This document shows positions 9,116 through 44,333 of a DNA stretch of 64,000 nucleotides, one piece after another. Positions within the stretch are counted from its first letter, which is position 1, and each line of letters begins with the position of its first letter. Under the pieces are notes generated by a model. It made no database searches. It was not told the origin of the DNA and was given only the letters and a program-made list of their open reading frames with translations. Location: NCBI GenBank assembly GCA_021784595.1, contig JAJYHT010000009.1, positions 62,001 through 126,000 of the forward strand, given 5' to 3'. A program made the position numbers and the translations under genes. The stretch is from Bacillota bacterium (lineage in GTDB: Bacteria; Bacillota; Sulfobacillia; Sulfobacillales; Sulfobacillaceae).

Positions 9116-9602
9116 CATTCCGCCCTATCCAGCGCGTCGCGATCGTGTATACCGTACCTCATTGTTGGTTTTTACAGGGTTCCTTTTGGTCACCGCCATA
9201 GGGACGCTCATCGCAAACCCCGGGCTTGAAGAGATTGGGCACTGGGGAGCCAGTCTGTCTTTGGTCGTATCAGGATGGACATTTTTGGTCTGGCTTTCCA
9301 ATTGGCGTTGGCTGGTCCGTAGTTTAGTGGTGATCGGAGCCGTGATTGCTTTTATCCCACATTTAGCTATTTTGTCATGGGCGTTTACCATCGCGGCTAG
9401 CGCGATCATGGCCGCTAAAGAAACTCACTGTTTCCATTTTTGGGCGGGAAAAGTCATCCCGTGGTACTCCCTAGTGCTGGGGATTGGGGTCTTGATTGGG
9501 CTGCCAGCGATCATCCAAGGCCTGTTGTGGTTGGGCCTGGCGGCACTCTGGGCATTCTTAATGGCAGGCCGTCTGAAATTGCCGCTATTTGTGATTGACT
9601 AG
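9051..9602 (+). CDS. DUF2301-like integral membrane protein
   Basis: The 183-residue hydrophobic protein has about five to six predicted membrane helices: near residues 33-52, 64-84, 90-125 in two stretches, and 135-178 in two stretches. The central AAKETHCFHFW segment resembles the conserved KE-x-x-CF block of DUF2301 membrane proteins, whose function is unknown. The TTG start at 9051 follows GAAGGAGGTGCAG, a very strong ribosome-binding site inside the 3' end of dnaE, so the genes overlap by 65 nt and are translationally coupled. The stop codon is followed by a convergent gene. The family match is from memory of the motif and is moderate. Confidence 0.6.
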   Translation: MKNSGLTSKEITQHLTPPPGISIPPYPARRDRVYRTSLLVFTGFLLVTAIGTLIANPGLEEIGHWGASLSLVVSGWTFLVWLSNWRWLVRSLVVIGAVIAFIPHLAILSWAFTIAASAIMAAKETHCFHFWAGKVIPWYSLVLGIGVLIGLPAIIQGLLWLGLAALWAFLMAGRLKLPLFVID

Positions 9603-9635
9603 GCCATTTTAGACGGCACATCCAGCCCGCGATGG

Positions 9636-10220
9636 TTAATATCCTTCGGGCTCTCGGGTAGGTTCTTCCGAGATGCCGCAAGCAAAATTGACATAGCGGG
9701 CCGAAGCAAAAAACGCATCCGAGAGACGGTTAATGAAGGTCAGCACGGCCTTTGGGACCGGCTCCTTGTGGTTCAGACGCAAGATTTCACGTTCAGCTCG
9801 GCGACAGACGGTAGTGCATATGTAAAGGTCTGTTGCGGCCAAAGTGCCTTCTGGGAGCGTAAAAGGCCGCCATGGCGGAGAGGCGTCACGCAATTGGTCT
9901 ATGAGCCGTTCCAAGGCCTCGGTATGTTCAGGCAACGTGGCCACTGGTTTTGGCTGCTGCGGGTTGCGAGACAAGTCGCCACCGACCCGAAACAATCGAT
10001 GCTGCAATTCTTTTAGGCTTATCTCCAAATGATTCCAGAGATCTGGCGTGGGATCGGGCCTGTCTATTTTGAGTTGAGCTCGGGCGTGTCCTAAAAAGCT
10101 GTTCAACTCATAAAGCATGCCGTATGCAGCGACTCGGTCGCTGTGTTTTGCTACCCGTTCGCCTGTGGCTAAGCGGGTTTGACCCTGGTCTCCGCGACGG
10201 GTATAAATTTTTCCTGCCAT
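9636..10220 (-). CDS. Cob(I)alamin adenosyltransferase, PduO/MMAB type
   Basis: The protein (194 residues from the chosen start) opens with KIYTRRGDQGQTRL, the ATP-binding signature of PduO-type adenosyltransferases, then SDRVAAYGMLYELNSFLGHAR and near the C-terminus ICTTVCRRAEREI followed by INRLSDAFFASARYVN. It makes adenosylcobalamin from cob(I)alamin and ATP for B12-dependent mutases or isomerases. The ATG at 10220 is chosen over the in-frame TTG at 10259. A TATAAT box on the minus strand at 10259-10264 would place the transcript start downstream of the TTG, and AGAGAGGCGG precedes the ATG. No other B12 gene is adjacent. Confidence 0.9.
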   Translation of the reverse strand: MAGKIYTRRGDQGQTRLATGERVAKHSDRVAAYGMLYELNSFLGHARAQLKIDRPDPTPDLWNHLEISLKELQHRLFRVGGDLSRNPQQPKPVATLPEHTEALERLIDQLRDASPPWRPFTLPEGTLAATDLYICTTVCRRAEREILRLNHKEPVPKAVLTFINRLSDAFFASARYVNFACGISEEPTREPEGY

Positions 10221-10258
10221 GGGGCTCGCCGCCTCTCTTACCATGCGTTTTGTTAACA

Positions 10259-10264
10259 ATTATA
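10259..10264 (-). promoter_or_regulatory. -10 box (TATAAT) upstream of the adenosyltransferase gene
   Basis: A perfect TATAAT lies on the minus strand between the stop codon of the small YIEGIA partner gene and the adenosyltransferase start. No convincing -35 hexamer is visible at 17 bp. It supports an independent transcript and decides the downstream start codon. Confidence 0.4.
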
Positions 10265-10288
10265 CAAGAGGCGACGGGCGGTGCCTAC

Positions 10289-10495
10289 TTAGACGCTGGC
10301 CTGGTTTACGGTGAGGATGATGGTTCCGTTATGGAGATCATGGGCGATGCAGTTGGTGATCCGGCACAACCACATGGCAATTCGGTCTCGCTCGGGCTCG
10401 TCCGCTGCGACGAATACCGGGGCCATGCCACCGTGCACCGCTTCTTTGTTGGTGGTTACGATGGCAAACATAATCGGGGTAGGGGCATCAGCCAT
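10289..10495 (-). CDS. Small partner of YIEGIA protein (capping-complex-subunit-like)
   Basis: This 68-residue protein has a hydrophobic N-terminal strand (IMFAIVTTN), a GGMAPVFVAADEPERDRIAMWL segment and a conserved-looking end with IAHDLHNGTIILTV. Its start codon lies directly after the TAG of the YIEGIA gene, with AAAGGAGATGGAC spanning the junction, so the two are co-translated. Spore-former genomes pair YIEGIA membrane proteins with a small downstream protein that RefSeq names a capping complex subunit. Size, position and the IAHDLxNGT motif fit that description. This rests on recalled family features, not a search. Confidence 0.6.
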   Translation of the reverse strand: MADAPTPIMFAIVTTNKEAVHGGMAPVFVAADEPERDRIAMWLCRITNCIAHDLHNGTIILTVNQASV

Positions 10496-11413
10496 CTAGT
10501 CCATCTCCTTTCGACGCAGTATCGGGCTGGTAAGTGCCGACCACTTTCCTGCCTCGAGGACGGGAGTGTTTTTGATGGCTTGGATAAGCGCTTGCATGTT
10601 GGACTCCACGGGCAAAATAGAGAGCCCCGCACGGCCCGATCCTTTGGGCATATCCATCCGACAGAGCGGTGTTTGCTCGGGATAGCCAACGTCTTTTTGC
10701 GTACCCACGGCAGCGGCGGCTTCGTGGGAAATCGCTTGGCGCTGGGCGATATTCCACAGTACCGATTGCCCGCGGCGTCCTTTTGGCGTCAAAATTACGC
10801 CCATACCTTCTTTTTGGTAACGGTCCCGCGAATGAGGCAGGCCCACTTCCATCATCATCACGTCGCCCACGTACAGCAAGGATCCCTTTTCGAAGTGCAG
10901 CTTGGCAGGCTCCACTTCAATCATGTCGCCAATTTTTGGCCCAGACATGTAGATCTCGCCAACCACAATGGCAATGATCCCTACGACCAGCCCAATGACG
11001 ATTCCGGTATATTGGGTCGCGACCGCGGTCACCAGTGCGACCAGCATGGCCAGGTAGTTGCGGGCTTCATAAGTAATGGCGATACCTTCAATGTAGCCAG
11101 CGCCCCGCGATACCAAAATCAACTCTTCTTCTTGCTCCAGAGTCTTGCGCTCGGTGGACCGGACGTCGCGAAACTGGGTGGCCGCCAGGGTAAGGAATGT
11201 GGCGGCGGTAAATTCTTTGCCGACTAAGGCTACGATAACACTGGACCCAATCATTGCTGCAATGATGGCCAGTGCCAATTGGGAAATGTAGCCCGAAGGA
11301 AAACCGGGGTAATGGCTGCGTCCGGTGCGGATAGAGATCAGACGCGAGAGAAAACCTGCCGCAAACCCTATGATCATCGGACTCCAGTCAATGGGACCAC
11401 CGCTAGACGACAT
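10496..11413 (-). CDS. YIEGIA family sporulation-associated membrane protein
   Basis: The 305-residue protein carries the eponymous YIEGIA motif at residues 107-112 in RGAGYIEGIAITYEARNYLAML. Membrane segments are predicted near residues 10-25, 43-66 and 118-153, and the C-terminal half is soluble and basic. The family is restricted to endospore-formers; its molecular role is not established from sequence. The ATG follows GGAGGAGGCAACAC, a strong ribosome-binding site. It forms a two-gene operon with the 68-residue partner downstream. The divergent CorA gene lies about 250 nt away. The family call is strong because the motif itself is present. Confidence 0.85.
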   Translation of the reverse strand: MSSSGGPIDWSPMIIGFAAGFLSRLISIRTGRSHYPGFPSGYISQLALAIIAAMIGSSVIVALVGKEFTAATFLTLAATQFRDVRSTERKTLEQEEELILVSRGAGYIEGIAITYEARNYLAMLVALVTAVATQYTGIVIGLVVGIIAIVVGEIYMSGPKIGDMIEVEPAKLHFEKGSLLYVGDVMMMEVGLPHSRDRYQKEGMGVILTPKGRRGQSVLWNIAQRQAISHEAAAAVGTQKDVGYPEQTPLCRMDMPKGSGRAGLSILPVESNMQALIQAIKNTPVLEAGKWSALTSPILRRKEMD

Positions 11414-16383: not shown

Positions 16384-16942
16384 GATCTGTGCCGATTTCT
16401 TGACTCTGTGTGCATAGGACTATCGAACTATTATGAGGCACTGATACTCCTTTTGTGGTTGCAGGGCTATCTCCCCGTTTTGATTTCGACATTCATGCCA
16501 GACTAACCTGCCGTTTTACGGCAATCCCATGCCAGGTGCGTATTTCTCTCGACCATGGTGAGGGACGGGTTGGATCGGTGTTAATAAACAGCGGCCGCAA
16601 GGCATTGGGGGACAGGACGCTGGCAATTAAGCTTTGGCGCCATAATATTGACGGAAACTGCTCCGGTGGGCCCCCGGATGTTGGCTGCTCAGAAAGCGCC
16701 ATCACTTCAGCACGCCGGGTTACGGTCTCTACATCGCAAACACGGCTCTGAGGACTCGTGGCCCAACACTCGTTTCCCGGTGGGGCTAGGCCTTGTAGTA
16801 TTTTTGACGCGTTATCTGGGTCGTTTGACCATGAACCCGGATTACGAGCCATGTCAAAAAAGAGTGTGCCAAAACTTCTCAGCGTCGGCATTAATTTTCC
16901 AATTATGGGAAATACTAAGGCAAACACTGAGGAGGTCACGCC
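16384..16942. other. Long gene-free leader region upstream of prkA
   Basis: About 560 nt precede prkA. Open frames occur on both strands, one of them on the minus strand running 450 nt antisense into prkA, but none has a ribosome-binding site, recognisable motif or plausible composition. GAGGAGGTCACGCC immediately before 16943 is the prkA ribosome-binding site. No convincing promoter pair is recognised. The length suggests a long 5' leader, distal promoter elements or decayed sequence. Confidence 0.4.
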
Positions 16943-31026: not shown

Positions 31027-31821
31027 ATGGGGACGAAAGATAATCAGGGGAAGGCCTGGGATTCGGTAACGAGATCTCCGGAAGCCATGAAAATGATGGC
31101 AGAGGGTTTGCGACGCTCGAGTCTTGAGGGGGACATGACCCAGTCACCTATTGTCCAAGAGGTGATGCGCAACTTAGGACCGCAGCGCACGGTGCTTGAC
31201 ATCGGGGCCGGGGTTGGAAGGTTTGCCGCCCCCTTAGCCGAAGCGGGTTGCCGGGTCATCGCACTAGAACCTTCTTTGGAGATGCAAGGGTATCTCCAAA
31301 GAACGGTCGACTCAAGACAATTGTCCGACCGTGTTCGGATTGTGCATGAGGCATGGCCAACAAAATCGGAATATCAGGCAGAAGTGGCATTGGCAGCCTT
31401 TGTCATTCAATTTTCCGAGGATCCTGTGCAATTTGTGCGCGCTATGGAGCAATCCGCATCGATTCGCTGTATTTTGGGAGTGCATGTGGATCCAATGTTC
31501 AATTTTGCCTCAGATTTATGGGCCGCATTCCATCCCAACCAGGATCCTCCCCGCATGCCCATACTAGCTGACCTCTATCCTAAGCTTTTAGCCCAGGGGA
31601 TTGCCGCCAATGTGGAAATTGTGACGGAGCAACACGGCCCGCGTTTGTCAGATAAAGGGACGGCGTTTAACATCCTCGCCAATCGGTTGCAGATTACAGA
31701 CGATGAGACTTCGTTACAGCGTCTTCGGATTATGTGGCAGGCACATGGCGAGGTATGGATGAAGCCTAGACCCATGCGCACAGCCATCCTATCCTGGAAA
31801 CCGGACTCTGCATCGAAGTAA
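31027..31821 (+). CDS. Class I SAM-dependent methyltransferase
   Basis: The 264-residue protein has the Rossmann SAM-binding motif I VLDIGAGVGRFAAPLAEAG near residues 57-75, an acidic VIALEPS at the end of strand 2, and a VALAAFVIQF motif IV region. The beginning (GKAWDSVTRSPEAMKMMAEG) resembles small-molecule or lipid methyltransferases of type 11. The substrate is unknown. The ATG has a purine-rich GAGGGGGGATG site. It is monocistronic and convergent with a LuxR-type gene 50 nt away. Confidence 0.83.
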   Translation: MGTKDNQGKAWDSVTRSPEAMKMMAEGLRRSSLEGDMTQSPIVQEVMRNLGPQRTVLDIGAGVGRFAAPLAEAGCRVIALEPSLEMQGYLQRTVDSRQLSDRVRIVHEAWPTKSEYQAEVALAAFVIQFSEDPVQFVRAMEQSASIRCILGVHVDPMFNFASDLWAAFHPNQDPPRMPILADLYPKLLAQGIAANVEIVTEQHGPRLSDKGTAFNILANRLQITDDETSLQRLRIMWQAHGEVWMKPRPMRTAILSWKPDSASK

Positions 31822-31871
31822 TTTAAATCGGCCGTCATAAGAGGATTTTTGCGTTTACGGGATGACGCGGT

Positions 31872-33209
31872 CTATCCAGATTTGTGGGTATAGGAGTACG
31901 CCCGCTGCACCGTGCTGCGCGGAGCAAACTGACTGTATAAATCGCGTCGGTTTTTGGTGTCGGTTTTCCTATAAATATTGCGAAGATGGGTCTTTAGCGT
32001 GTTGATCGAGATATAGAGCTCTCCTAAAATTTCTTGATTGCTGTAACCTTGAAGCAACATCAAGGTGATGCGTTGTTCTTGTTGTGTTAATGGAAACCTG
32101 GCCAGCCATTCTTCGGGTTTGGGTTCTGGCACGGTCCTAGATTGATCGGTGAGGGCATGGCCACTTGGGTGCGGCAATAATGGGATCGCTATGAACAAAA
32201 AGATCAGTGGCAGGGCGTCAATAATCTGAGCTGTCAGGATGGTTTGTGTTGCCCACTCTAAACCGAGTATAAGCAGAGCGATAACGCTACAGCTGGCGAT
32301 GCGGTAGGGCCACGCCCACTGAGGTCGTAGAGCGGAAAAATTGGAGAATGCCCATGTCAATAAGAGGGCTGCCGCTATCACTAATAATATGGTGGAGAGC
32401 ATGGGGGAGAGTATGTGGTCAAGCGTATAGGCCACTCCTAAGAGGGAACATCCGGCATAACTCACATATCGGAGATATCCCAGATGGCGCATCCAAATAA
32501 TGATGGGGCCGACGATGAGAATCGCCGGCAGTATGGCAATGTTGCTGACCGCCTGGTGGGTTAAGATAAGATGGGACGCGGTGACCAATGCCAACAGCAT
32601 GGCTCCTCCACCAGCCATCTTGGTCGGTGAAGTCGCTGCAGGACTTTGATGGCTGGGAAAAGTCGCCTCTTGAGGATATTTTAGAACTTGTCCCCAAACA
32701 AAGAGCCCCGCTAGACACCCCGTCTCAATAAACCAGACCTGCCCCGCCAGCGTATGCACCAACACAGTCAGTGCGATCGCGACTAGTCCAGCGCCAATCC
32801 ACATCCCGGCCAACTGTCTGGTGGTGGCGTGACGGATAGTGGGAATTATTGCAAGGTATGCGTACCATAGTGGAATGACTGCCAAAAGCCACCACATGGC
32901 GATTAAGGGTATGAATCGGATTTGTCCGGCTAGGGGAATCGTGAGCAGATAGAAAACCCCAAACAGGGCAATAATCCTGGCTTTCATGGGTTGGCCGCCG
33001 GATTTCCACACGAGAAACGCCGTGAAGGCAATGCTGAGCACCATGGATAACCCAGGCCAGTACGATGGCTGTCCGGGCAACAGGGGATTGGTAACGCTTT
33101 GCAGGATTACGGCGGCTATCCATCCGCTAGACACCATAAGAAATCCTGATGTCGGCCAGTTCTGCCTTTTCACAACGGACCATAGAAGATATTTGGTCAT
33201 CTCTATCAT
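31872..33209 (-). CDS. Polytopic membrane protein with C-terminal LuxR-type HTH
   Basis: The 445-residue protein has about eleven predicted membrane helices across residues 15-350, followed by a cytoplasmic LuxR/GerE-type DNA-binding domain (LTQQEQRITLMLLQGYSNQEILGELYISINTLKTHLRNIYRKT, residues 375-418). Membrane-anchored one-component regulators of this shape occur in Firmicutes and Actinobacteria; the sensed signal is unknown. It is divergent from a NarL-type response regulator across a 184-nt region with a near-perfect direct repeat and next to an exopolysaccharide locus, so it may control that locus. The start is ATG 33209 or the ATG three codons later. Confidence 0.75.
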   Translation of the reverse strand: MIEMTKYLLWSVVKRQNWPTSGFLMVSSGWIAAVILQSVTNPLLPGQPSYWPGLSMVLSIAFTAFLVWKSGGQPMKARIIALFGVFYLLTIPLAGQIRFIPLIAMWWLLAVIPLWYAYLAIIPTIRHATTRQLAGMWIGAGLVAIALTVLVHTLAGQVWFIETGCLAGLFVWGQVLKYPQEATFPSHQSPAATSPTKMAGGGAMLLALVTASHLILTHQAVSNIAILPAILIVGPIIIWMRHLGYLRYVSYAGCSLLGVAYTLDHILSPMLSTILLVIAAALLLTWAFSNFSALRPQWAWPYRIASCSVIALLILGLEWATQTILTAQIIDALPLIFLFIAIPLLPHPSGHALTDQSRTVPEPKPEEWLARFPLTQQEQRITLMLLQGYSNQEILGELYISINTLKTHLRNIYRKTDTKNRRDLYSQFAPRSTVQRAYSYTHKSG

Positions 33210-33280
33210 CGCCTCTCTAGGGTGATCTCTCCCGTGATGGGGGTGAGACCCTGATTAACAGTTAACCGCCCCATAAAAAG

Positions 33281-33344
33281 CCGATATAGAGAGATACCCC
33301 TAAAGTTGAGGGGGAGATATCCCTAAGGTTGTACGTCATATCGG
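33281..33344. promoter_or_regulatory. Tandem direct repeat flanked by inverted repeat in divergent regulator promoter region
   Basis: GAGATACCCCTAAAGTTG (33291-33308) and GAGATATCCCTAAGGTTG (33314-33331) match at 16 of 18 positions with a 23-bp period. They are bracketed by CCGATAT (33281-33287) and ATATCGG (33338-33344). The region lies between the divergent LuxR-type gene and response regulator gene and is a good candidate binding site for one of them. Confidence 0.55.
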
Positions 33345-33393
33345 ATAATGTTTGCTATTATGTCAGTAAATAAATGGTAAAGAAGGGAATATC

Positions 33394-34074
33394 TTGCGAC
33401 AAGAATCCGACCCCATCCGAATTGTGGTGGTGGAAGATGAGGATTTGTTTCGCCAGTTGCTGTGCCTGTCGTTAAATCAGCACCCGCGAGTTCAAGTGCT
33501 AAATGATTTTCAAAGTGGCGAATCATCCTTGGAATGGTTAGAATGTCATGTTGCCGATGTCGCCCTCCTGGACATCGATTTAGGCAATGGTTGGAACGGG
33601 GTCGCCACTGGACTGCGATTAAAGGAGCGACAGCCAAATCTTGGTATCGTACTGCTCAGTAATCACGCGGAGCCAGAAATATTGCGGATATTGCCTAAGC
33701 ACGATGTGGCCGGTTGGTCATATTTACTGAAAAAATCTGCCCGCAATATAGAAACCGTTGTGCGCGCTATTGAGGGAACGGCCGCCGGTCTGCTCGTGGT
33801 GGACCCCTTGTTGATCAGCCAATTGGGGGAGATGGCCTCGCCGTACCACAAGCTGACGACGCGACAACAACACATTTTGCGGCTAATCGCGCAAGGCTAT
33901 ACCAACAATGAAATTGCCAAACAGCTGTTCTTGTCCGAGAAATCGATTGAAAACCAAGTGGGCATTATCTATCATACATTGGAAATTGACTCCTCGGGTC
34001 GAGTGGAACATCCTAGGGTGCGTGCGACGCTAGCATTTTTAGAAATGGCTAAACATCAAAGTTTTTCTCCCTAG
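33394..34074 (+). CDS. NarL/FixJ family response regulator
   Basis: The 226-residue protein has a receiver domain (acidic pocket VVVEDEDLF, phosphoacceptor Asp in ALLDIDLGNG near residue 54, conserved Lys in YLLKKSA) and a LuxR-type helix-turn-helix (KLTTRQQHILRLIAQGYTNNEIAKQLFLSEKSIENQV). A cognate histidine kinase is not adjacent. The TTG start is supported by AAGAAGGGA six nt upstream. It is divergent from a membrane LuxR-type regulator. The gene ends 14 nt before a convergent exopolysaccharide kinase gene and probably controls polysaccharide or surface functions. Confidence 0.85.
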   Translation: MRQESDPIRIVVVEDEDLFRQLLCLSLNQHPRVQVLNDFQSGESSLEWLECHVADVALLDIDLGNGWNGVATGLRLKERQPNLGIVLLSNHAEPEILRILPKHDVAGWSYLLKKSARNIETVVRAIEGTAAGLLVVDPLLISQLGEMASPYHKLTTRQQHILRLIAQGYTNNEIAKQLFLSEKSIENQVGIIYHTLEIDSSGRVEHPRVRATLAFLEMAKHQSFSP

Positions 34075-34087
34075 CGTTTGCAAAGCA

Positions 34088-34759
34088 TTAATAGCTCATG
34101 GCGTAGTCCGAAGCTTCGTCATCGGCACGCATGCCGTTGACAATGACGCCTAATAATCGAGCGTGCACCTGAGTGAGAAGTTCAATCGCCCTGCGGTCTA
34201 ATTTTCGTGAATTATGTCCGGGTCGCAAAATGTACAGCACTCCATCCACCATATGGGAGAGCAGAATCGCGTCCGTGACGGCAATCGCCGGAGAGGTGTC
34301 GAGAACAATCAGGTCGGCCTGCTGAGATAACTGCTGCAGGGCATCGTGAGCGGGAGGAGAGGCTAGTAACTCAACCGGATTGGGTGGCAACGGGCCGCTG
34401 GGAAGAATTTTGAGATTTGGTATGGGAGTCTCGTGCAGTACGTTCGTTATGGGCAGTTTTTTTGAGATGGCCGTGGTAAACCCCGGTGTTTGGGGACACG
34501 AAAAGATGGCGTGCAGCCGTGGACGGCGTAGATCGGCATCAACTAGGATGACTTTTCGCCCGGTTTGGGCCATTACGGTGGCTAAATTGGCGGCCACAAA
34601 AGATTTGCCGGACTCGGCTACCGCACTGGTGACAAGAATGGACTTAATGGGTGAGGGGACAGCCAAAAAATCGATTTGGGTACGAATGCTGCGGAACGAT
34701 TCGTCGGCGAAATGCGGTTTTCTCTCTAGTGTAATCAATTGGCTTTTAGCGAATGGCAT
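34088..34759 (-). CDS. Bacterial tyrosine kinase / CpsD-CapB family chain-length regulator
   Basis: The 223-residue protein has BY-kinase motifs: a Walker A variant in ILVTSAVAESGKSFVAANLA, Walker A' VILVDADLRRPRLH and Walker B LIVLDTSPAIAVTD. It ends with only a short tyrosine tail (DYAMSY) where longer clusters are usual. It autophosphorylates and, with a Wzz-like membrane partner, controls polymer length. The partner gene is just upstream (about 50 nt) on the same strand. The ATG at 34759 follows an AGGAGG 12 nt upstream. A 9-residue longer form would include the ribosome-binding site and is rejected. Confidence 0.88.
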   Translation of the reverse strand: MPFAKSQLITLERKPHFADESFRSIRTQIDFLAVPSPIKSILVTSAVAESGKSFVAANLATVMAQTGRKVILVDADLRRPRLHAIFSCPQTPGFTTAISKKLPITNVLHETPIPNLKILPSGPLPPNPVELLASPPAHDALQQLSQQADLIVLDTSPAIAVTDAILLSHMVDGVLYILRPGHNSRKLDRRAIELLTQVHARLLGVIVNGMRADDEASDYAMSY

Positions 34760-34809
34760 GGAATGATAATACCTCCTATATGTCAACGGATGTTTCTACT
34801 CTAGGCGTC

Positions 34810-35484
34810 TTAAGGTCCTGGATGTGATGGCAGGTGAGCAACCCAAGGGATAGTGCCCACCACACAAAGGCCTAAGTCTTTTTCTGCTTCGTGGGGATCC
34901 CGGATGCTGTCATCGAAATATTCTCGAAGCAATAACAGACCCACTCCCAAAATGAGACAAGCCATCGCGGCAGCGACACCGTACTTTAGTGTGGGCGAAG
35001 AACTTGGCGTGCTGGGTATGGTGGCTGGATCGACAATTTCCAATTGAGGTTTTCCTACTAAGTTCTGCACTTCTACACTGGTATTGTGCGCCAAGGTATT
35101 GGCGAGTTGGGCGGTTAGCTGTGGGTTGGTGGCGCTGACCTTAATGGACAGCAGATTGGTGTTGCTGATGGGTGTGCTGGACACGTCCTTGGCTAATGTG
35201 GACCATGACCAGTTGAGATTTAAGTCATTCAGTGTGGATGTCAGCAAATTGGATGTGGTGGATAAACTGGCATAGGTGTCGACCAGCTGTTGGTCGGTGA
35301 CCAACGCGGTTAGAAAGTCACTGCTATGACTGCTGGGAACCACCATAAGAGTCGCCGTAGCCTGGTACGTGGGTTTCATCCATTTGTGGGCAGCAAAGGC
35401 TGCTCCGGCCGCCGCAATGATGGCAATAGCCATCACAAACAGCAGGCTTTTTCGCATTCTCCGCCACAATCGCAATATATCCAT
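34810..35484 (-). CDS. Wzz/YveK-type polysaccharide chain-length determinant
   Basis: The 224-residue protein has two membrane helices, at residues 15-35 and 175-196, flanking an external domain that begins YQATATLMVVPSSHSS. The cytoplasmic tail with EYFDDSIRDPHEAEKDLGL is the segment that activates the BY-kinase partner in CapA/YveK systems. GGAGGTAGGAACGATA precedes the ATG. It is the first gene of the minus-strand pair and divergent from the plus-strand glycosyltransferases. The 297-nt region between holds a TATAAA (35748) that may be the -10 of the plus-strand operon. Confidence 0.85.
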   Translation of the reverse strand: MDILRLWRRMRKSLLFVMAIAIIAAAGAAFAAHKWMKPTYQATATLMVVPSSHSSDFLTALVTDQQLVDTYASLSTTSNLLTSTLNDLNLNWSWSTLAKDVSSTPISNTNLLSIKVSATNPQLTAQLANTLAHNTSVEVQNLVGKPQLEIVDPATIPSTPSSSPTLKYGVAAAMACLILGVGLLLLREYFDDSIRDPHEAEKDLGLCVVGTIPWVAHLPSHPGP

Positions 35485-35781
35485 TATCGTTCCTACCTCC
35501 AGCAGAGTGCCCCTTGATTTGCCAATTGTGAATCATGTGCATCATCCAACGGACTCCTGAGGACTGTCCATCATCTCCCAGGGGTGAAATGAACTGCAGG
35601 GGATAAAAGCGCGGACATGTGGTCGTCCCCCCAAGAGGCCACCGAATGGCATAAAGAGTCATGGGAGCGATTTCAGGGGTGAGTCCGGCAATTCATCCTC
35701 AATAGGTGATAGCACCCTGGAAATGACCCAATATACACTGGTCACGCTATAAATCAAATCCACGCATAGGGGGGAAAAGGC

Positions 35782-36537
35782 GTGATTAGTACTCACGAAC
35801 GAGCCCGATTGTCCGTTTTGCCGACCGTCAATATCGGCGATTTAGAAATATTGAATTGTACTCTTGAGGACGGGCTTGATTTGATTTCATGGATCATTGA
35901 ATTTGAATCGCCGGCGCAAGTGGTTTTCGTAAATACCCATGTGGTAAACAAGATTCATCGTACTGCCTTGTCCCCAATTCTTCGCGAGACCCTGAAATTC
36001 AATGATGGAATCGGAATGGAAATTGCAGCTCGCCTCAACGGGTGTCGATTTGCTCAAAACCTGAATGGAACCGATTTCTTGCCGCATCTGCTGCATCGGG
36101 CATGGTCCCAGCATTGGGGGGTATATGTCTATGGAGCACGCAAAACGGCTCTCGAGGCATTTATTCAAAAGGCATCGGCTCTTTTTCCTGGACTTGAACT
36201 GTCCGGCACAGACGGGTATAGCAATGTGCCGGTAGCTCATTTAATCGACGATATTCGGTCCAGCGGAGCTCACATACTTCTGGTGGCGTTAGGTGTGCCT
36301 GGCCAAGAACTGTGGTTGAACGCGCATTTGCAGCAGACCGGTTGCTTGGTGGGTATAGGGGTCGGTGCGTTTATTGATATGTACGGAGAAACAATACCGC
36401 GGGCGCCACGTATTTGGCGTTCGGCACGGTGCGAATGGCTGTGGCGGCTGATTCACGAACCGCGGCGGTTGTGGCGAAGATATTTGGTGGAAGGTCCCGG
36501 CTTTTTGTGGTGGACCCTGTCGAACCGAGGTGGTTAA
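35782..36537 (+). CDS. WecG/TagA/CpsF family glycosyltransferase
   Basis: The 251-residue protein has GT26 motifs: VVFVNTHVVNKIHRT, NDGIGMEIAARLNG, NGTDFLPHLLH, WGVYVYGARKTALEAF, VALGVPGQELWL, GVGAFIDMYGETIPRAPRIWR and EWLWRLIHEPRRLWRRY at the end. Members add N-acetylmannosaminuronic acid, N-acetylmannosamine or glucose to lipid-linked intermediates. It works on the inner membrane face in the second step of repeat-unit assembly. The GTG start follows AGGGGGGAAAAGGC. It is the first gene of the plus-strand transferase block, and the next gene starts directly at its stop codon. Confidence 0.87.
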   Translation: MISTHERARLSVLPTVNIGDLEILNCTLEDGLDLISWIIEFESPAQVVFVNTHVVNKIHRTALSPILRETLKFNDGIGMEIAARLNGCRFAQNLNGTDFLPHLLHRAWSQHWGVYVYGARKTALEAFIQKASALFPGLELSGTDGYSNVPVAHLIDDIRSSGAHILLVALGVPGQELWLNAHLQQTGCLVGIGVGAFIDMYGETIPRAPRIWRSARCEWLWRLIHEPRRLWRRYLVEGPGFLWWTLSNRGG

Positions 36538-37665
36538 GTGCGGGTTCTAATGGTCTGCCGACAGTTTTGGCCGTATCAGGGGGGGTTGGAATCTGCCTCA
36601 TTGTTAATGGCCAAAGGGCTTAGCCAAAAACGTCACCAAGTGGATGTTGTAACCTTGAATTGCCGCATACGTAATCCGCAGTCCTCTCCCCTACCGAGTG
36701 ACGACAGACTCGGGCCGATTCACATCCGCCGGGTGGCCTCCCTATCGCGCAATTACTGTTTACCGGTGTGGAAGCCTCCGCAGTCTCACTATGATGTGGT
36801 TCATCTCAATGGCATTGATGGATTTTTGGAACTGGTGCATTGGTTTAATACTCAATCCCGAATTCCGGTTGTGCTTCAAAGTCACGGATTGATATTTCAC
36901 ACCACGCGTTTGCTAAGGCTTAAAAATGCATATTGGCGTCATTTGTTCACCAAACGCGCCCAGTCCTTGACGGTGGTAGCTTCTAGCAAGAGTGACGCCA
37001 ATAAATTGGCCGAAGTGGGGGTGGCCAGCACGGTCATCCCAAATCCGGTAAGCCTGGTGGGATTTCCCGAAAACCCCGATCGGCCGATTGATTTGCTTTA
37101 CCTGGGCCGGATGGCAGAACATAAGGGCCTGCCGCAAGTCTTGGCGGTGTTTTTGAAAATGCAGGAAAAATGGCCGCATATCCAAATGGTCTTCGCCGGG
37201 GAAGATTGGGACGGGACCTTAAAAGCCTTGTTGCCTTTGCCCAAAGGCGTTACCTGGCTAGGACAGGTCACGGAGCAAAAAAAACGCTGGCTGTTGCAAA
37301 GCGCCAAAATTGCCTTATTTCCATCTCGGGCGGAAGGTTTTGGGATTACTGTGATTGAAGCGATGTCGGCCGGGTCGGTGGTAGTGGCCAATGATATTGA
37401 GGTCTACGGAGAAATTGTTGAGCACGAGGTCAATGGGTATTTGTCCTGTTATCAAGACATCAACCGCACGGCGAAACTGCTGGAATCCCTTTTAGAAAAA
37501 GATTCCAACCGATTGTTCTTTGTTAAAAAGCAAGGCTTTCAGACGGCACAACTTTACGATCCCGACCGCATTGCGAACCTTCTGCTCGGTGTCTATCACC
37601 ATGCACAAGAAAGCCACATGCGGAAATATCGTAGACAAGGGGGCATCAATGCAAAGGGCACTTGA
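36538..37665 (+). CDS. Glycosyltransferase family 4
   Basis: The 375-residue protein has GT-B/GT4 features: an N-terminal strand with QFWPYQGGLESASLLMAKGL, SHGLIFHTTRL, then the C-terminal UDP-sugar domain with LLYLGRMAEHKGLPQVL, PSRAEGFGITVIEAMSAGSVVVAND (the E-x7-E motif) and IVEHEVNGYL. It adds a sugar to the growing lipid-linked oligosaccharide. The GTG start directly follows the stop codon of the previous gene, so translation is coupled. The next gene starts 17 nt before its end. Confidence 0.87.
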   Translation: MRVLMVCRQFWPYQGGLESASLLMAKGLSQKRHQVDVVTLNCRIRNPQSSPLPSDDRLGPIHIRRVASLSRNYCLPVWKPPQSHYDVVHLNGIDGFLELVHWFNTQSRIPVVLQSHGLIFHTTRLLRLKNAYWRHLFTKRAQSLTVVASSKSDANKLAEVGVASTVIPNPVSLVGFPENPDRPIDLLYLGRMAEHKGLPQVLAVFLKMQEKWPHIQMVFAGEDWDGTLKALLPLPKGVTWLGQVTEQKKRWLLQSAKIALFPSRAEGFGITVIEAMSAGSVVVANDIEVYGEIVEHEVNGYLSCYQDINRTAKLLESLLEKDSNRLFFVKKQGFQTAQLYDPDRIANLLLGVYHHAQESHMRKYRRQGGINAKGT

Positions 37666-43217: not shown

Positions 43218-43811
43218 AAATTGCGGGGGTTGGTGAAAGATCGTGACACCAGAGTGGATGCAAAAGACCGATGAATCTACGCTAGGATATACAAATGGAT
43301 ATATTGCAGGAGTCAAACGTCATCATTTCTATATATAACGTCGAAGTTTACATTGCCACGGCTATTGGGTTGGTTACTGAGCAAACTTACCGTTCTACTG
43401 GACTTATCCAAATCTGTTCATTGCCGATTCCATTTTGCATCCCCTTCCTGCGTCATCATGTCACGGATTGCTAAGGTTGATGCCGGCCATCCACCGTAGG
43501 CCATTTCCCAGACGGGCACTGAGCAGTTTCGTGAATGCGGCGATCAATTTACAACACGTGGCCGAGAGCTCGATGACCGGCTGCCCATCCGTTGCCGTGT
43601 AAATCCTAGACGCGGGTGTTTTCCTCCATGAATCATTAGTGTAGGAAATTATAGCAAGGTCTTAGCTCTCTCTTCGGTTGGGGAATCCGCTGAATCTAAG
43701 GGTGAACCGATACTGTCATCCCATGTGGGTGATAGTCATGGTTTCGGGCACGTTGTACGCTGTTTTTGTGGCTGTATGTCAGGCGAGTGGCCACAAGAAC
43801 GGGGGATCGCT
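43218..43811. other. Decayed region between two transferase blocks
   Basis: About 590 nt without an intact gene. It contains a GT2 N-terminal fragment (43295-43474) and, further on, a minus-strand frame at about 43461-43610 encoding IELSATCCKLIAAFTKLL that ends at a TGA and starts nowhere convincing. The latter could be a gene remnant, but no family is recognised. Confidence 0.5.
43295..43474 (+). pseudogene. Remnant of a family 2 glycosyltransferase gene
   Basis: A 59-codon frame begins with NVIISIYNVEVYIATAIGLVT followed by EQTYRS. This matches the first strand and helix of GT2 enzymes; the intact neighbour at 40898 has SVIIPAYNAELYVGNAIESV there. The frame then departs from the family where VVDDGS should follow, and stops. 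It is only about 40 residues of a normal 300, so this is a truncated, non-functional copy. Confidence 0.65.
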
Positions 43812-44333
43812 GTGAAAATTCTCATGGTCTCTTCAAACGGGGGGCATTTTTGGCAACTGAAGATGGCCCATACATGTTTTTCACAAGACGAAGTAAGGAT
43901 GGTTTCGTTTCCGACGCCTGACGTGAAAACATGGGTAGCAACCCATCGGATTCCAACATATTGGGGGTATTACCCCACCAATCGAAGCATAGTCAACCTG
44001 ATAAGAAATGCGTGGCTGGCGCGTCGGATTTTGCAAGAGTACCATCCCGATCTCGTGGTGACCACGGGGGCTGGGGTAGGCGTACCCTTTATCATCCTGG
44101 GGAAGTTGCTGTTACACTGTCACACCATGTTTATTGAGGTATTTGATCGAGTGGCGTCTCCGACCCTCACGGGCCGAATGGTTTACCGGTTTGCTGACAC
44201 GGTGGTATTGCAGTGGGAAAGCCAAAAGCAATTTTATCCTAAAGGGATTGTGGTAGGAGGATTATTATGGTCTTCATTGCAAGTGGCACCCACCGGCAAT
44301 CTTTCAACCGGGCGATCCATTGGATTCAAATAG
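43812..44333 (+). CDS. Alg14/PssD-type glycosyltransferase subunit
   Basis: The 173-residue protein starts with VKILMVSSNGGHFWQL, the Alg14/PssD N-terminal GGH motif, and has PDLVVTTGAGVGVPFIILGKLL with the conserved TTGAG block and a short hydrophobic stretch. Members anchor an Alg13/PssE catalytic partner at the membrane to transfer GlcNAc, GlcA or Gal to a lipid-linked sugar. A GTG start follows GGGGGATC. The partner gene overlaps its 3' end by 67 nt. Confidence 0.85.
   Translation: MKILMVSSNGGHFWQLKMAHTCFSQDEVRMVSFPTPDVKTWVATHRIPTYWGYYPTNRSIVNLIRNAWLARRILQEYHPDLVVTTGAGVGVPFIILGKLLLHCHTMFIEVFDRVASPTLTGRMVYRFADTVVLQWESQKQFYPKGIVVGGLLWSSLQVAPTGNLSTGRSIGFK

What the first reader, a model, noticed from the sequence alone, without database searches (positions are those of the whole stretch)
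33281..33344. Tandem 18-bp repeats between divergent membrane LuxR regulator and response regulator
Two copies match at 16 of 18 positions with a 23-bp period and are bracketed by CCGATAT/ATATCGG. Such arrangements are typical of sites for cooperative binding of LuxR/NarL-type proteins. The genes flank the exopolysaccharide locus, so the pair could be its switch.
Basis: partly seen in the sequence, partly recalled or inferred. Interest (0 to 1): 0.5.

Follow-up and report, generated by a model that had tools for sequence, protein, structure and literature searches.

The report
Tandem operator between two LuxR-type regulators
The repeated DNA is a real, evolutionarily conserved element, most likely a docking site for the response regulator encoded next to it, so it probably lets this regulator pair control its own expression beside a slime-polysaccharide gene cluster; it is a new example of a familiar kind of genetic switch.

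Summary
The repeat is real: 33291-33308 and 33314-33331, 16/18 identical, 23-bp period, the only such close repeat in the window. The CCGATAT/ATATCGG bracket exists but is chance-level and absent from the nearest relative. Unit 2 holds a GGG-N-CCC dyad, unit 1 a half-degenerate one. The dyad recurs at orthologues of the flanking response regulator and/or membrane LuxR gene, often in tandem at 23-24 bp; Sulfobacillus benefaciens AMDSBA4 has three at exactly 23 bp. A motif learnt without the window ranks this pair first of all tandem pairs in the 64 kb (24.5 against 9.1; 0 of 200 simulations); single-site scores alone are not exceptional. None of 102 unrelated gaps has a tandem pair above 9.2. 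So: a conserved, probably autoregulatory operator, best attributed to the response regulator, at about -48/-71 of a predicted extended -10 promoter. In seven relatives the dyad lies at about +29 instead, suggesting repression there. The proposed direct switch of the exopolysaccharide genes is not supported: no site near 35750; of eight EPS-promoter gaps only G020's has tandem sites. No binding was tested.

The parts
33286..33308 (+).
   Evidence: aligned with tandem units of relatives; score 8.7 with a motif learnt without the window
33309..33331 (+).
   Evidence: best single site of the 64-kb window (15.8) with a motif learnt without the window; simulated windows have a mean best of 14.8, so only the tandem pair is exceptional
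33239..33258 (+). Further predicted dyad GGGGGTGAGACCCTGATTAA, nearer the membrane LuxR gene
   Evidence: third-best single site of the window (14.4); not in the 23-bp register; not significant alone
33353..33361 (+). Predicted extended -10 promoter TGCTATTAT of the response regulator gene
   Evidence: sequence; present as TGCTATGAT inside the shared block ATGTTTGCTAT(T/G)ATG in G004; the sigma-70 scan, which needs a -35, found no promoter in 33100-33500
33394..34074 (+). NarL-type response regulator (receiver + GerE), TTG start; favoured binder
   Evidence: PF00072, PF00196; the Asp of the LLDIDLG stretch is Asp in all 20 aligned family members
31872..33209 (-). Predicted polytopic membrane protein with C-terminal LuxR/GerE domain, divergently transcribed; alternative or second binder
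   Evidence: PF00196 at 373-426; hydrophobic segments over residues 21-353
34088..35484 (-). wze-like P-loop ATPase gene and wzz-like chain-length gene, convergent with the regulator
   Evidence: PF10609, PF01656 and PF13614 above cut-off; PF02706 above cut-off
35782..36537 (+). WecG/TagA glycosyltransferase gene, rightward EPS gene; the gap before it (35485-35781) has no matching operator

Best explanation
The repeats are two adjacent 23-bp operator units, each a dimer-type dyad (consensus over relatives about gGGGGGTaaCCCCt), in the shared control region of a divergently transcribed NarL-type response regulator and a membrane-embedded LuxR-type regulator. The response regulator (probably phosphorylated) most likely binds them side by side, and cooperatively, to control its own gene and the divergent partner. 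SHOWN: the repeat, its conservation and period in relatives, and its rarity in unrelated gaps and in this genome as far as searched. INFERRED: that a protein binds; that the binder is the response regulator; that in this genus binding activates the response regulator gene, because the units lie at about -48 and -71 of a predicted extended -10 promoter without a good -35; and that in seven relatives, where the dyad lies at about +29, binding represses the response regulator promoter. Effects on polysaccharide genes would then be indirect or through weaker sites.
For: (1) A motif learnt from 12 regions of relatives with the window left out gives unit 2 as best single site (15.8) and units 1+2 as best tandem pair (24.5; next non-overlapping 9.1; 0 of 200 Markov simulations reach it) in the window. 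(2) Spacings between successive motif sites: G004 23 and 23; G006, G020, G046, G049 23; G009 24; G005b 46 and 21; G018 78 (second site weak); four of the 12 regions show a single site. (3) GGG-N4-8-CCC dyads: 22 in 13 regions (own included) against 5.8 +/- 2.1 in 300 shuffles, maximum 12 (regions chosen after dyads had been seen by eye). (4) 9 of 20 promoter regions of this response-regulator family carry a tandem pair scoring 17.7 or more (8 of the 9 were in the training set, the window was not); of 102 unrelated gaps, 2 have any tandem pair and none scores above 9.2. (5) Genome profile search: own site E 7.6e-5 (it is in the profile), next match E 0.38 inside a coding frame (150 of 760 first-look candidates scored). 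(6) Binder: G018 and G014 keep a dyad at the response regulator gene and show only short HTH matches to the membrane LuxR protein. (7) In seven relatives a -10-like hexamer lies at a near-constant distance from the dyad: +28 to +30; at one exact offset 5 of 7 match TATAAT at 5 or 6 positions, group mean 4.14 against a null maximum of 3.29 in 300 shuffles (group chosen).
Against: No binding or expression data. Single-site scores are not exceptional: simulated windows have a mean best of 14.8 against 15.8 here, and a site in the 43725-44333 frame scores 14.6. 11 of 20 family regions lack a tandem pair, including all six rows of the clade that is sister to the window's own pair in the tree, a moderately supported fork. 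The set of 15 other NarL-type regulators with no tandem pair is a weak control, since by mechanical ORF calls only 5 of their upstream regions are mostly non-coding. In G020 the dyads sit at the membrane LuxR gene and not at the response regulator gene, and in G022 a single dyad lies upstream of a membrane LuxR gene that precedes the response regulator. The distance between the arms, read by hand, varies (about N4 to N7; runs of G and C make it ambiguous), which is untidy for one dimer. Placement relative to the promoter differs between this genus (upstream) and seven relatives (downstream), so one mode of action does not fit all; over all 11 relatives' contexts the -10 profile is weaker (3.18). 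Promoters are predicted by eye, and the sigma-70 scan found none here.
Confidence: 0.62

Rival explanations
1. The membrane-embedded LuxR protein, alone or together with the response regulator (mixed or competing occupancy, as in BldM-WhiI or RcsA-RcsB), is the binder, so the units integrate a membrane signal with a phosphorylation signal.
For: The dyads lie in the shared divergent region with the membrane LuxR gene in own, G004, G009, G015, G049, G046 and G005b and at the membrane LuxR gene without the response regulator gene divergent to it in G020 and, as a single dyad, G022. Unit 1 has a degenerate left half and unit 2 a good one, which would fit unlike half-site readers. Precedent for palindromic homodimer and non-palindromic heterodimer sites: PMC4125116, passages seen.
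Against: G018 and G014 keep a dyad, while only short HTH matches to the membrane LuxR protein were found in these genomes.
Confidence: 0.25
2. One reading: the pair is the direct switch of the exopolysaccharide locus through copies of this repeat at transferase promoters.
For: Linkage to wzz/wze genes in own, G004, G006, G015 (one gene between) and, for the membrane LuxR, G020; a wzz-like gene about 3 kb away in G009. Tandem sites in the G020 wzz-wecG gap (pair score 23.7, spacing 27).
Against: Own wzz-wecG gap best score 6.2, no tandem; G004 7.7, no tandem; 7 of 8 EPS gaps without tandem; 28% of 102 other gaps score at least 6.2. The G020 sites overlap a long palindrome that may be something else.
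Confidence: 0.1
3. The dyads act as RNA hairpins in a transcribed leader (attenuator or riboswitch-like) rather than as a protein operator.
For: Inverted symmetry with variable loop length; in seven relatives the dyad lies downstream of the predicted -10, and in G018 and G014 next to the ribosome-binding site; the G004 region folds better than shuffles (z -2.6).
Against: No Rfam match in 31800-36600; the other five of six folds are unremarkable (z from -1.2 to +0.3); in this genus the units lie upstream of the predicted promoter; the 23-24 bp period and near-constant distance to the -10 are DNA-type constraints.
Confidence: 0.05
4. Chance or a simple duplication without function.
For: The CCGATAT/ATATCGG bracket is chance-level; single-site scores are not exceptional.
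Against: The tandem pair found with the window left out of the learning, the conserved period, and the 102 unrelated gaps without such a pair.
Confidence: 0.03

Closest known systems
DevR/DosR (Mycobacterium tuberculosis), NarL-family response regulator with paired Dev boxes
   Same: Closely packed binding sites bound cooperatively, the nearer one overlapping the -35 element, at divergent promoters, and autoregulation (PMC3029386, passages seen)
   Different: Motif differs (G-run/C-run dyad here); here the partner gene is a membrane LuxR protein and no kinase gene adjoins the regulator
NreC of Staphylococcus (NreABC oxygen/nitrate system)
   Same: Response regulator binding a GC-rich palindrome (PMC8139620, one passage seen); the consensus TAGGG-N4-CCCTA is recalled and comes from no call, and resembles the dyads here
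   Different: In the window 6 bases (unit 2) separate the runs; sites are often tandem at 23-24 bp; neighbours are EPS and regulator genes. Orthology not tested
BldM-WhiI and RcsB-RcsA partner systems
   Same: Two LuxR-type regulators at one promoter; RcsA-RcsB controls capsule genes (PMC4125116, passages seen; that all four are LuxR-type is recalled)
   Different: Here one partner is a predicted integral membrane protein; heterodimerisation is untested
CrbR (Pseudomonas) ACTU motif
   Same: LuxR-family response regulator with an imperfect inverted repeat at -52 to -36 found by comparative motif search (PMC5715377, passages seen)
   Different: Acetate genes; described there as one inverted repeat, not a tandem pair

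Membership tests
NarL/FixJ-type response regulator operator (tandem, cooperative, DevR-like) | Adjacent gene encodes receiver + GerE HTH protein | tested here: met
   aligned family
NarL/FixJ-type response regulator operator (tandem, cooperative, DevR-like) | Repeated dyad sites conserved at orthologous promoters | tested here: met
   met in 9 of 20 family regions as a tandem pair, not in the other 11
NarL/FixJ-type response regulator operator (tandem, cooperative, DevR-like) | Promoter-proximal site overlaps or abuts the -35 region | tested here: inconclusive
   units at about -48/-71 of a predicted -10 in own, -36/-59/-82 in G004, but about +29 in seven relatives; no mapped start
NarL/FixJ-type response regulator operator (tandem, cooperative, DevR-like) | Cooperative binding of the phosphorylated regulator | not testable with these tools
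   needs footprinting or EMSA
NreC regulon | Site of the recalled form TAGGG-N4-CCCTA | tested here: not met
   window units: six bases between the runs in unit 2, no G-run in unit 1; several relatives' sites can be read as GGG-N4-CCC because the runs are long, so the test is negative for the window only. One search searched N5-9, not N4
NreC regulon | Linked sensor kinase and nitrate genes | tested here: inconclusive
   none of six neighbouring proteins scanned is a kinase, and a search with the G049 kinase gave no match inside the window; NreB itself and nitrate genes were not searched
LuxR (acyl-homoserine lactone) lux box system | Autoinducer-binding domain in a flanking LuxR protein | tested here: not met
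   up to E 0.001: only GerE in the membrane protein, receiver + GerE in the other
RNA leader element of a described family | Rfam match | tested here: not met
   none up to E = 1 in 31800-36600

The most novel reading that the evidence does not exclude
The tandem dyads are the meeting point of a phosphorylation signal and a membrane signal: the response regulator and the membrane-anchored LuxR protein occupy unlike half-sites of the same 23-bp units as partners or competitors, an RcsA/RcsB-like control of extracellular polysaccharide in acidophilic Firmicutes with one partner tethered in the membrane; and the operator has moved between a repressing position (+29, seven relatives) and an activating one (-48/-71, this genus), alongside loss of the linked kinase gene (direction and order of these changes untested).
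Probability: 0.12. Interest if true: 0.7.

Novelty: new member of a known kind. Interest (0 to 1): 0.38.

Why it matters
It gives a testable operator motif, and a likely binder, for a response-regulator family found in 18 of the 34 family genomes searched, linked in several of them to exopolysaccharide genes, which matter for mineral attachment by Sulfobacillus in bioleaching (general knowledge). The listings of two literature searches (Sulfobacillus with exopolysaccharide and response regulator, 10 papers; Sulfobacillus with LuxR, promoter and regulon, 1 paper) showed no title on this operator; none of these papers was opened, so this is weak evidence that it is unpublished. The apparent change of operator position between genera would be a tractable example of promoter rewiring.

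Tried and rejected
Bracket CCGATAT/ATATCGG as part of the element: rejected, chance-level and absent from G004. A third decayed 23-bp unit over 33332-33354: 9 of 23 matches to unit 2 by hand count, not claimed. Other copies in the genome: the 18-mer with up to 3 mismatches gave 7 matches against 6 in the reversed control, two of them the known copies; TAGGG-N5-9-CCCTA gave 14 sites against 39 in the control, and of the 9 contexts printed (of 14) the best-looking one lies inside a coding frame; a tighter pattern gave 4 against 9 in the control, two of them this locus. The highest rival single site in the window (43957-43976, score 14.6) lies inside the 43725-44333 reading frame. sigma-70 promoter and terminator scan of 33100-33500: nothing. 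Rfam: nothing. RNA folding: unremarkable in five of six, G004 z -2.6. Quorum-sensing lux box: flanking proteins show no autoinducer domain. Literature: the NreC site consensus was not found in the two papers opened for it; PMC10269533 was searched for LuxR and GerE with no hit; PMC1274295 passages seen but not used; some searches were used as listings to pick papers. Weak profile matches in relatives (29 places listed, nine of them below E 0.01 and all nine from the profile's own alignment): 12 loci were inspected, one the window's own site; of the other 11, nine lie in coding frames, one (G045) is intergenic and one (G023) was not placed; not pursued.

Limits: the 13 regions used for the motif were chosen after dyads had been seen by eye; the window was left out of the learning, which is why one search is the main test. 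The statement that genomes with a dyad also have the response regulator is circular for those reached through it; only G020 and G022 came through the membrane LuxR gene. The 15-regulator control proved weak on checking (10 of 15 upstream regions mostly coding), so the 102 gaps are the better control. The profile searches scored only 150 first-look candidates per genome. The PWM counted overlapping positions and was replaced by the non-overlapping one. Site scores differ slightly between (relatives' background in the listing of their sites; window background). Transcription starts are assumed 7 bases after the -10 hexamer. The seven-genome group was chosen after one search had shown similar distances.

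Full report
WHAT IS THERE. The window lies in contig C95 of a 3.79-Mb genome. The closest genome with an orthologous locus (G004, same genus) appears to be Sulfobacillus benefaciens AMDSBA4: its contig has the length of PXYW01000021 and the same locus. Between a divergent membrane LuxR gene (31872-33209, -) and a receiver+GerE response regulator gene (33394-34074, +) lies a 184-bp region with two direct copies of an 18-mer at 33291 and 33314, 16/18 identical, 23 bp apart. No other 18-mer in the window is repeated so closely and so well; 60 simulations give a mean of 0.03 per window. The 7-bp bracket is present, but 41% of 347 same-sized tiles contain at least one such inverted pair.

WHAT THE UNIT IS. 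Read as 23-bp units (33286-33308 and 33309-33331) the sequence is a head-to-tail pair in which a G-rich left half is followed 6 bases later by a CCCTAA right half. Unit 2 has both halves; unit 1 has a degenerate left half (alignment).

RELATIVES. Response regulators of this family were found at E <= 1e-30 in 18 of 34 family genomes, 20 places. Reading upstream of them showed GGG..CCC dyads in many. G004 has three, TAGGGATGTATCCCG, TTAGGGGTTATTCCTAA and GCGGGTGATATCCCC, at exactly 23 and 23 bp. G006, G046 and G049 have two at 23 bp, G009 two at 24 bp; G020, where the pair lies at the membrane LuxR gene only, two at 23 bp; G005b three at 46 and 21 bp; G015, G005a, G014 and G022 one above the threshold; G018 one strong and one weak site 78 bp away. 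Over all 13 regions there are 22 such dyads against 5.8 +/- 2.1 in 300 shuffles. I chose these regions after seeing dyads by eye, so this count is descriptive.

THE FAIR TEST. I learnt a 20-bp weight matrix from the 12 regions of relatives only and scanned the window on both strands. Units 1 and 2 together are the best tandem pair (24.5), the next non-overlapping pair scoring 9.1, and no Markov simulation of 200 reaches 24.5. Unit 2 is also the best single site (15.8) and 33239-33258 the third (14.4), but that alone means little: simulated windows have a mean best single score of 14.8, and a coding site at 43957 scores 14.6. The strength lies in the pairing at the conserved period.

CONTROLS. 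Of 102 unrelated gaps of 100-400 bp in the window and relatives' loci, 2 have any tandem pair (both about 9.1, with spacing 20-28 allowed) and none more, whereas 9 of the 20 family regions have one scoring 17.7 to 37.7 (8 of these 9 contributed to the matrix, the window did not). The upstream regions of 15 other NarL-type regulators also have none (best single 6.6), but 10 of these 15 are mostly coding by mechanical ORF calls, so that control is weak. A sequence-only profile of the tandem unit finds in the own genome this site (E 7.6e-5; it is part of the profile) and then only a match at E 0.38 inside a coding frame; the search scored 150 of 760 first-look candidates. In the family search all nine matches below E 0.01 belong to the alignment the profile was built from.

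WHO BINDS. Both neighbours have a GerE/LuxR DNA-binding domain. Two genomes with a dyad at the response regulator gene (G018, G014) show only short HTH matches to the membrane LuxR protein. All twelve genomes with a dyad, own included, have the response regulator, but ten of them were reached through it. In G020 the dyads sit at the membrane LuxR gene while the response regulator gene lies about 20 kb away; in G022 a single dyad lies upstream of a membrane LuxR gene that precedes the response regulator in the same direction. In G005a a second dyad, not in the training set, lies upstream of a stand-alone receiver gene next to the response regulator. I therefore favour the response regulator, but a contribution of the membrane protein is not excluded. 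Against a simple story, 11 of 20 family regions lack tandem sites, including the six that are sister to the window's clade in the tree.

HOW IT COULD WORK. Own and G004 share the block ATGTTTGCTAT(T/G)ATG, read as an extended -10 without a recognisable -35; with a start assumed 7 bases downstream, the units centre at about -71 and -48 in the window and -82, -59 and -36 in G004, positions suited to activation. In G009, G006, G015, G049, G046, G018 and G014 the first dyad centres at +28 to +30 of a predicted -10; the second, computed in G009, G046, G049 and G006, at +52 or +53. At one exact offset 5 of these 7 have a hexamer with 5 or 6 TATAAT matches (G046 and G014 are one base off), and the group mean of 4.14 exceeds all 300 shuffles (maximum 3.29); over all 11 relatives' contexts it is 3.18 (group chosen). 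That position would suit repression of the response regulator gene. These are inferences from predicted promoters.

THE POLYSACCHARIDE LINK. The pair adjoins wze/wzz genes in own, G004 and G006, with one gene between in G015, and, for the membrane LuxR, in G020. But the wzz-wecG gap of the window scores only 6.2 with no tandem pair, and 28% of 102 unrelated gaps score as high; G004 scores 7.7. Only G020, of eight EPS gaps tested in six genomes, has tandem sites (12.3 maximum, pair 23.7), overlapping a long palindrome. Direct control of the EPS genes in the window is therefore unsupported; linkage alone remains.

KINASE. G049 and G005b have a kinase with an HATPase_c domain just after the response regulator gene. 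In G009 and G015 the neighbouring protein shows weak similarity to these kinases but gives no Pfam match up to E 0.01 and has Arg where the H-box His stands, G009 having a better match farther on. In own and G004 no match adjoins the response regulator; the best ones are on other contigs (31% and 33% identity). How the receiver is phosphorylated here is unknown.

KNOWN OR NEW. The arrangement works like DevR's paired boxes (PMC3029386, passages) and the dyad resembles the GC-rich palindrome bound by NreC (PMC8139620, one passage; its consensus is recalled). The NarL heptamer TACYYMT (recalled) is matched exactly by TACCCCT at 33295-33301. I file it as a new member of a known kind: a conserved, probably autoregulatory tandem operator of a NarL-type response regulator family.

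Noticed in passing
L113:11901-13019 and L115:7973-8998 (G009, G015): Proteins beside the response regulator with weak similarity to the HATPase-bearing kinases of G049/G005 but no Pfam match and Arg where the H-box His stands; they look like decayed or repurposed sensor kinases.
   Followed up: partly
L108:11439-11767 (G020 wzz-wecG gap): Long palindrome CTTAACGGGTGAAA..TTTCACCCGTTAAG in an EPS promoter region, overlapping tandem motif hits.
   Followed up: no
L107:5809-5828 (G005): A dyad (GGGTGCTAACCCCTAACTTT, score 12.3) upstream of a stand-alone receiver-domain gene next to the response regulator, suggesting a second target.
   Followed up: partly
window 16462-16481: Intergenic single motif hit CAGGGCTATCTCCCCGTTTT (score 12.3), no tandem partner.
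   Followed up: no
L111:3128-3961 and L113:8926-9771: A gene for a HisKA-type histidine kinase lies directly downstream of the membrane LuxR gene in G046 and G009; the domains were confirmed by Pfam only for G009.
   Followed up: no
L119 around 9600-9830 (G022): The region upstream of the membrane LuxR gene in G022 reads like a structured-RNA or rRNA-like stretch to the eye; Rfam gave no match up to E 0.1 in 9300-10600.
   Followed up: partly
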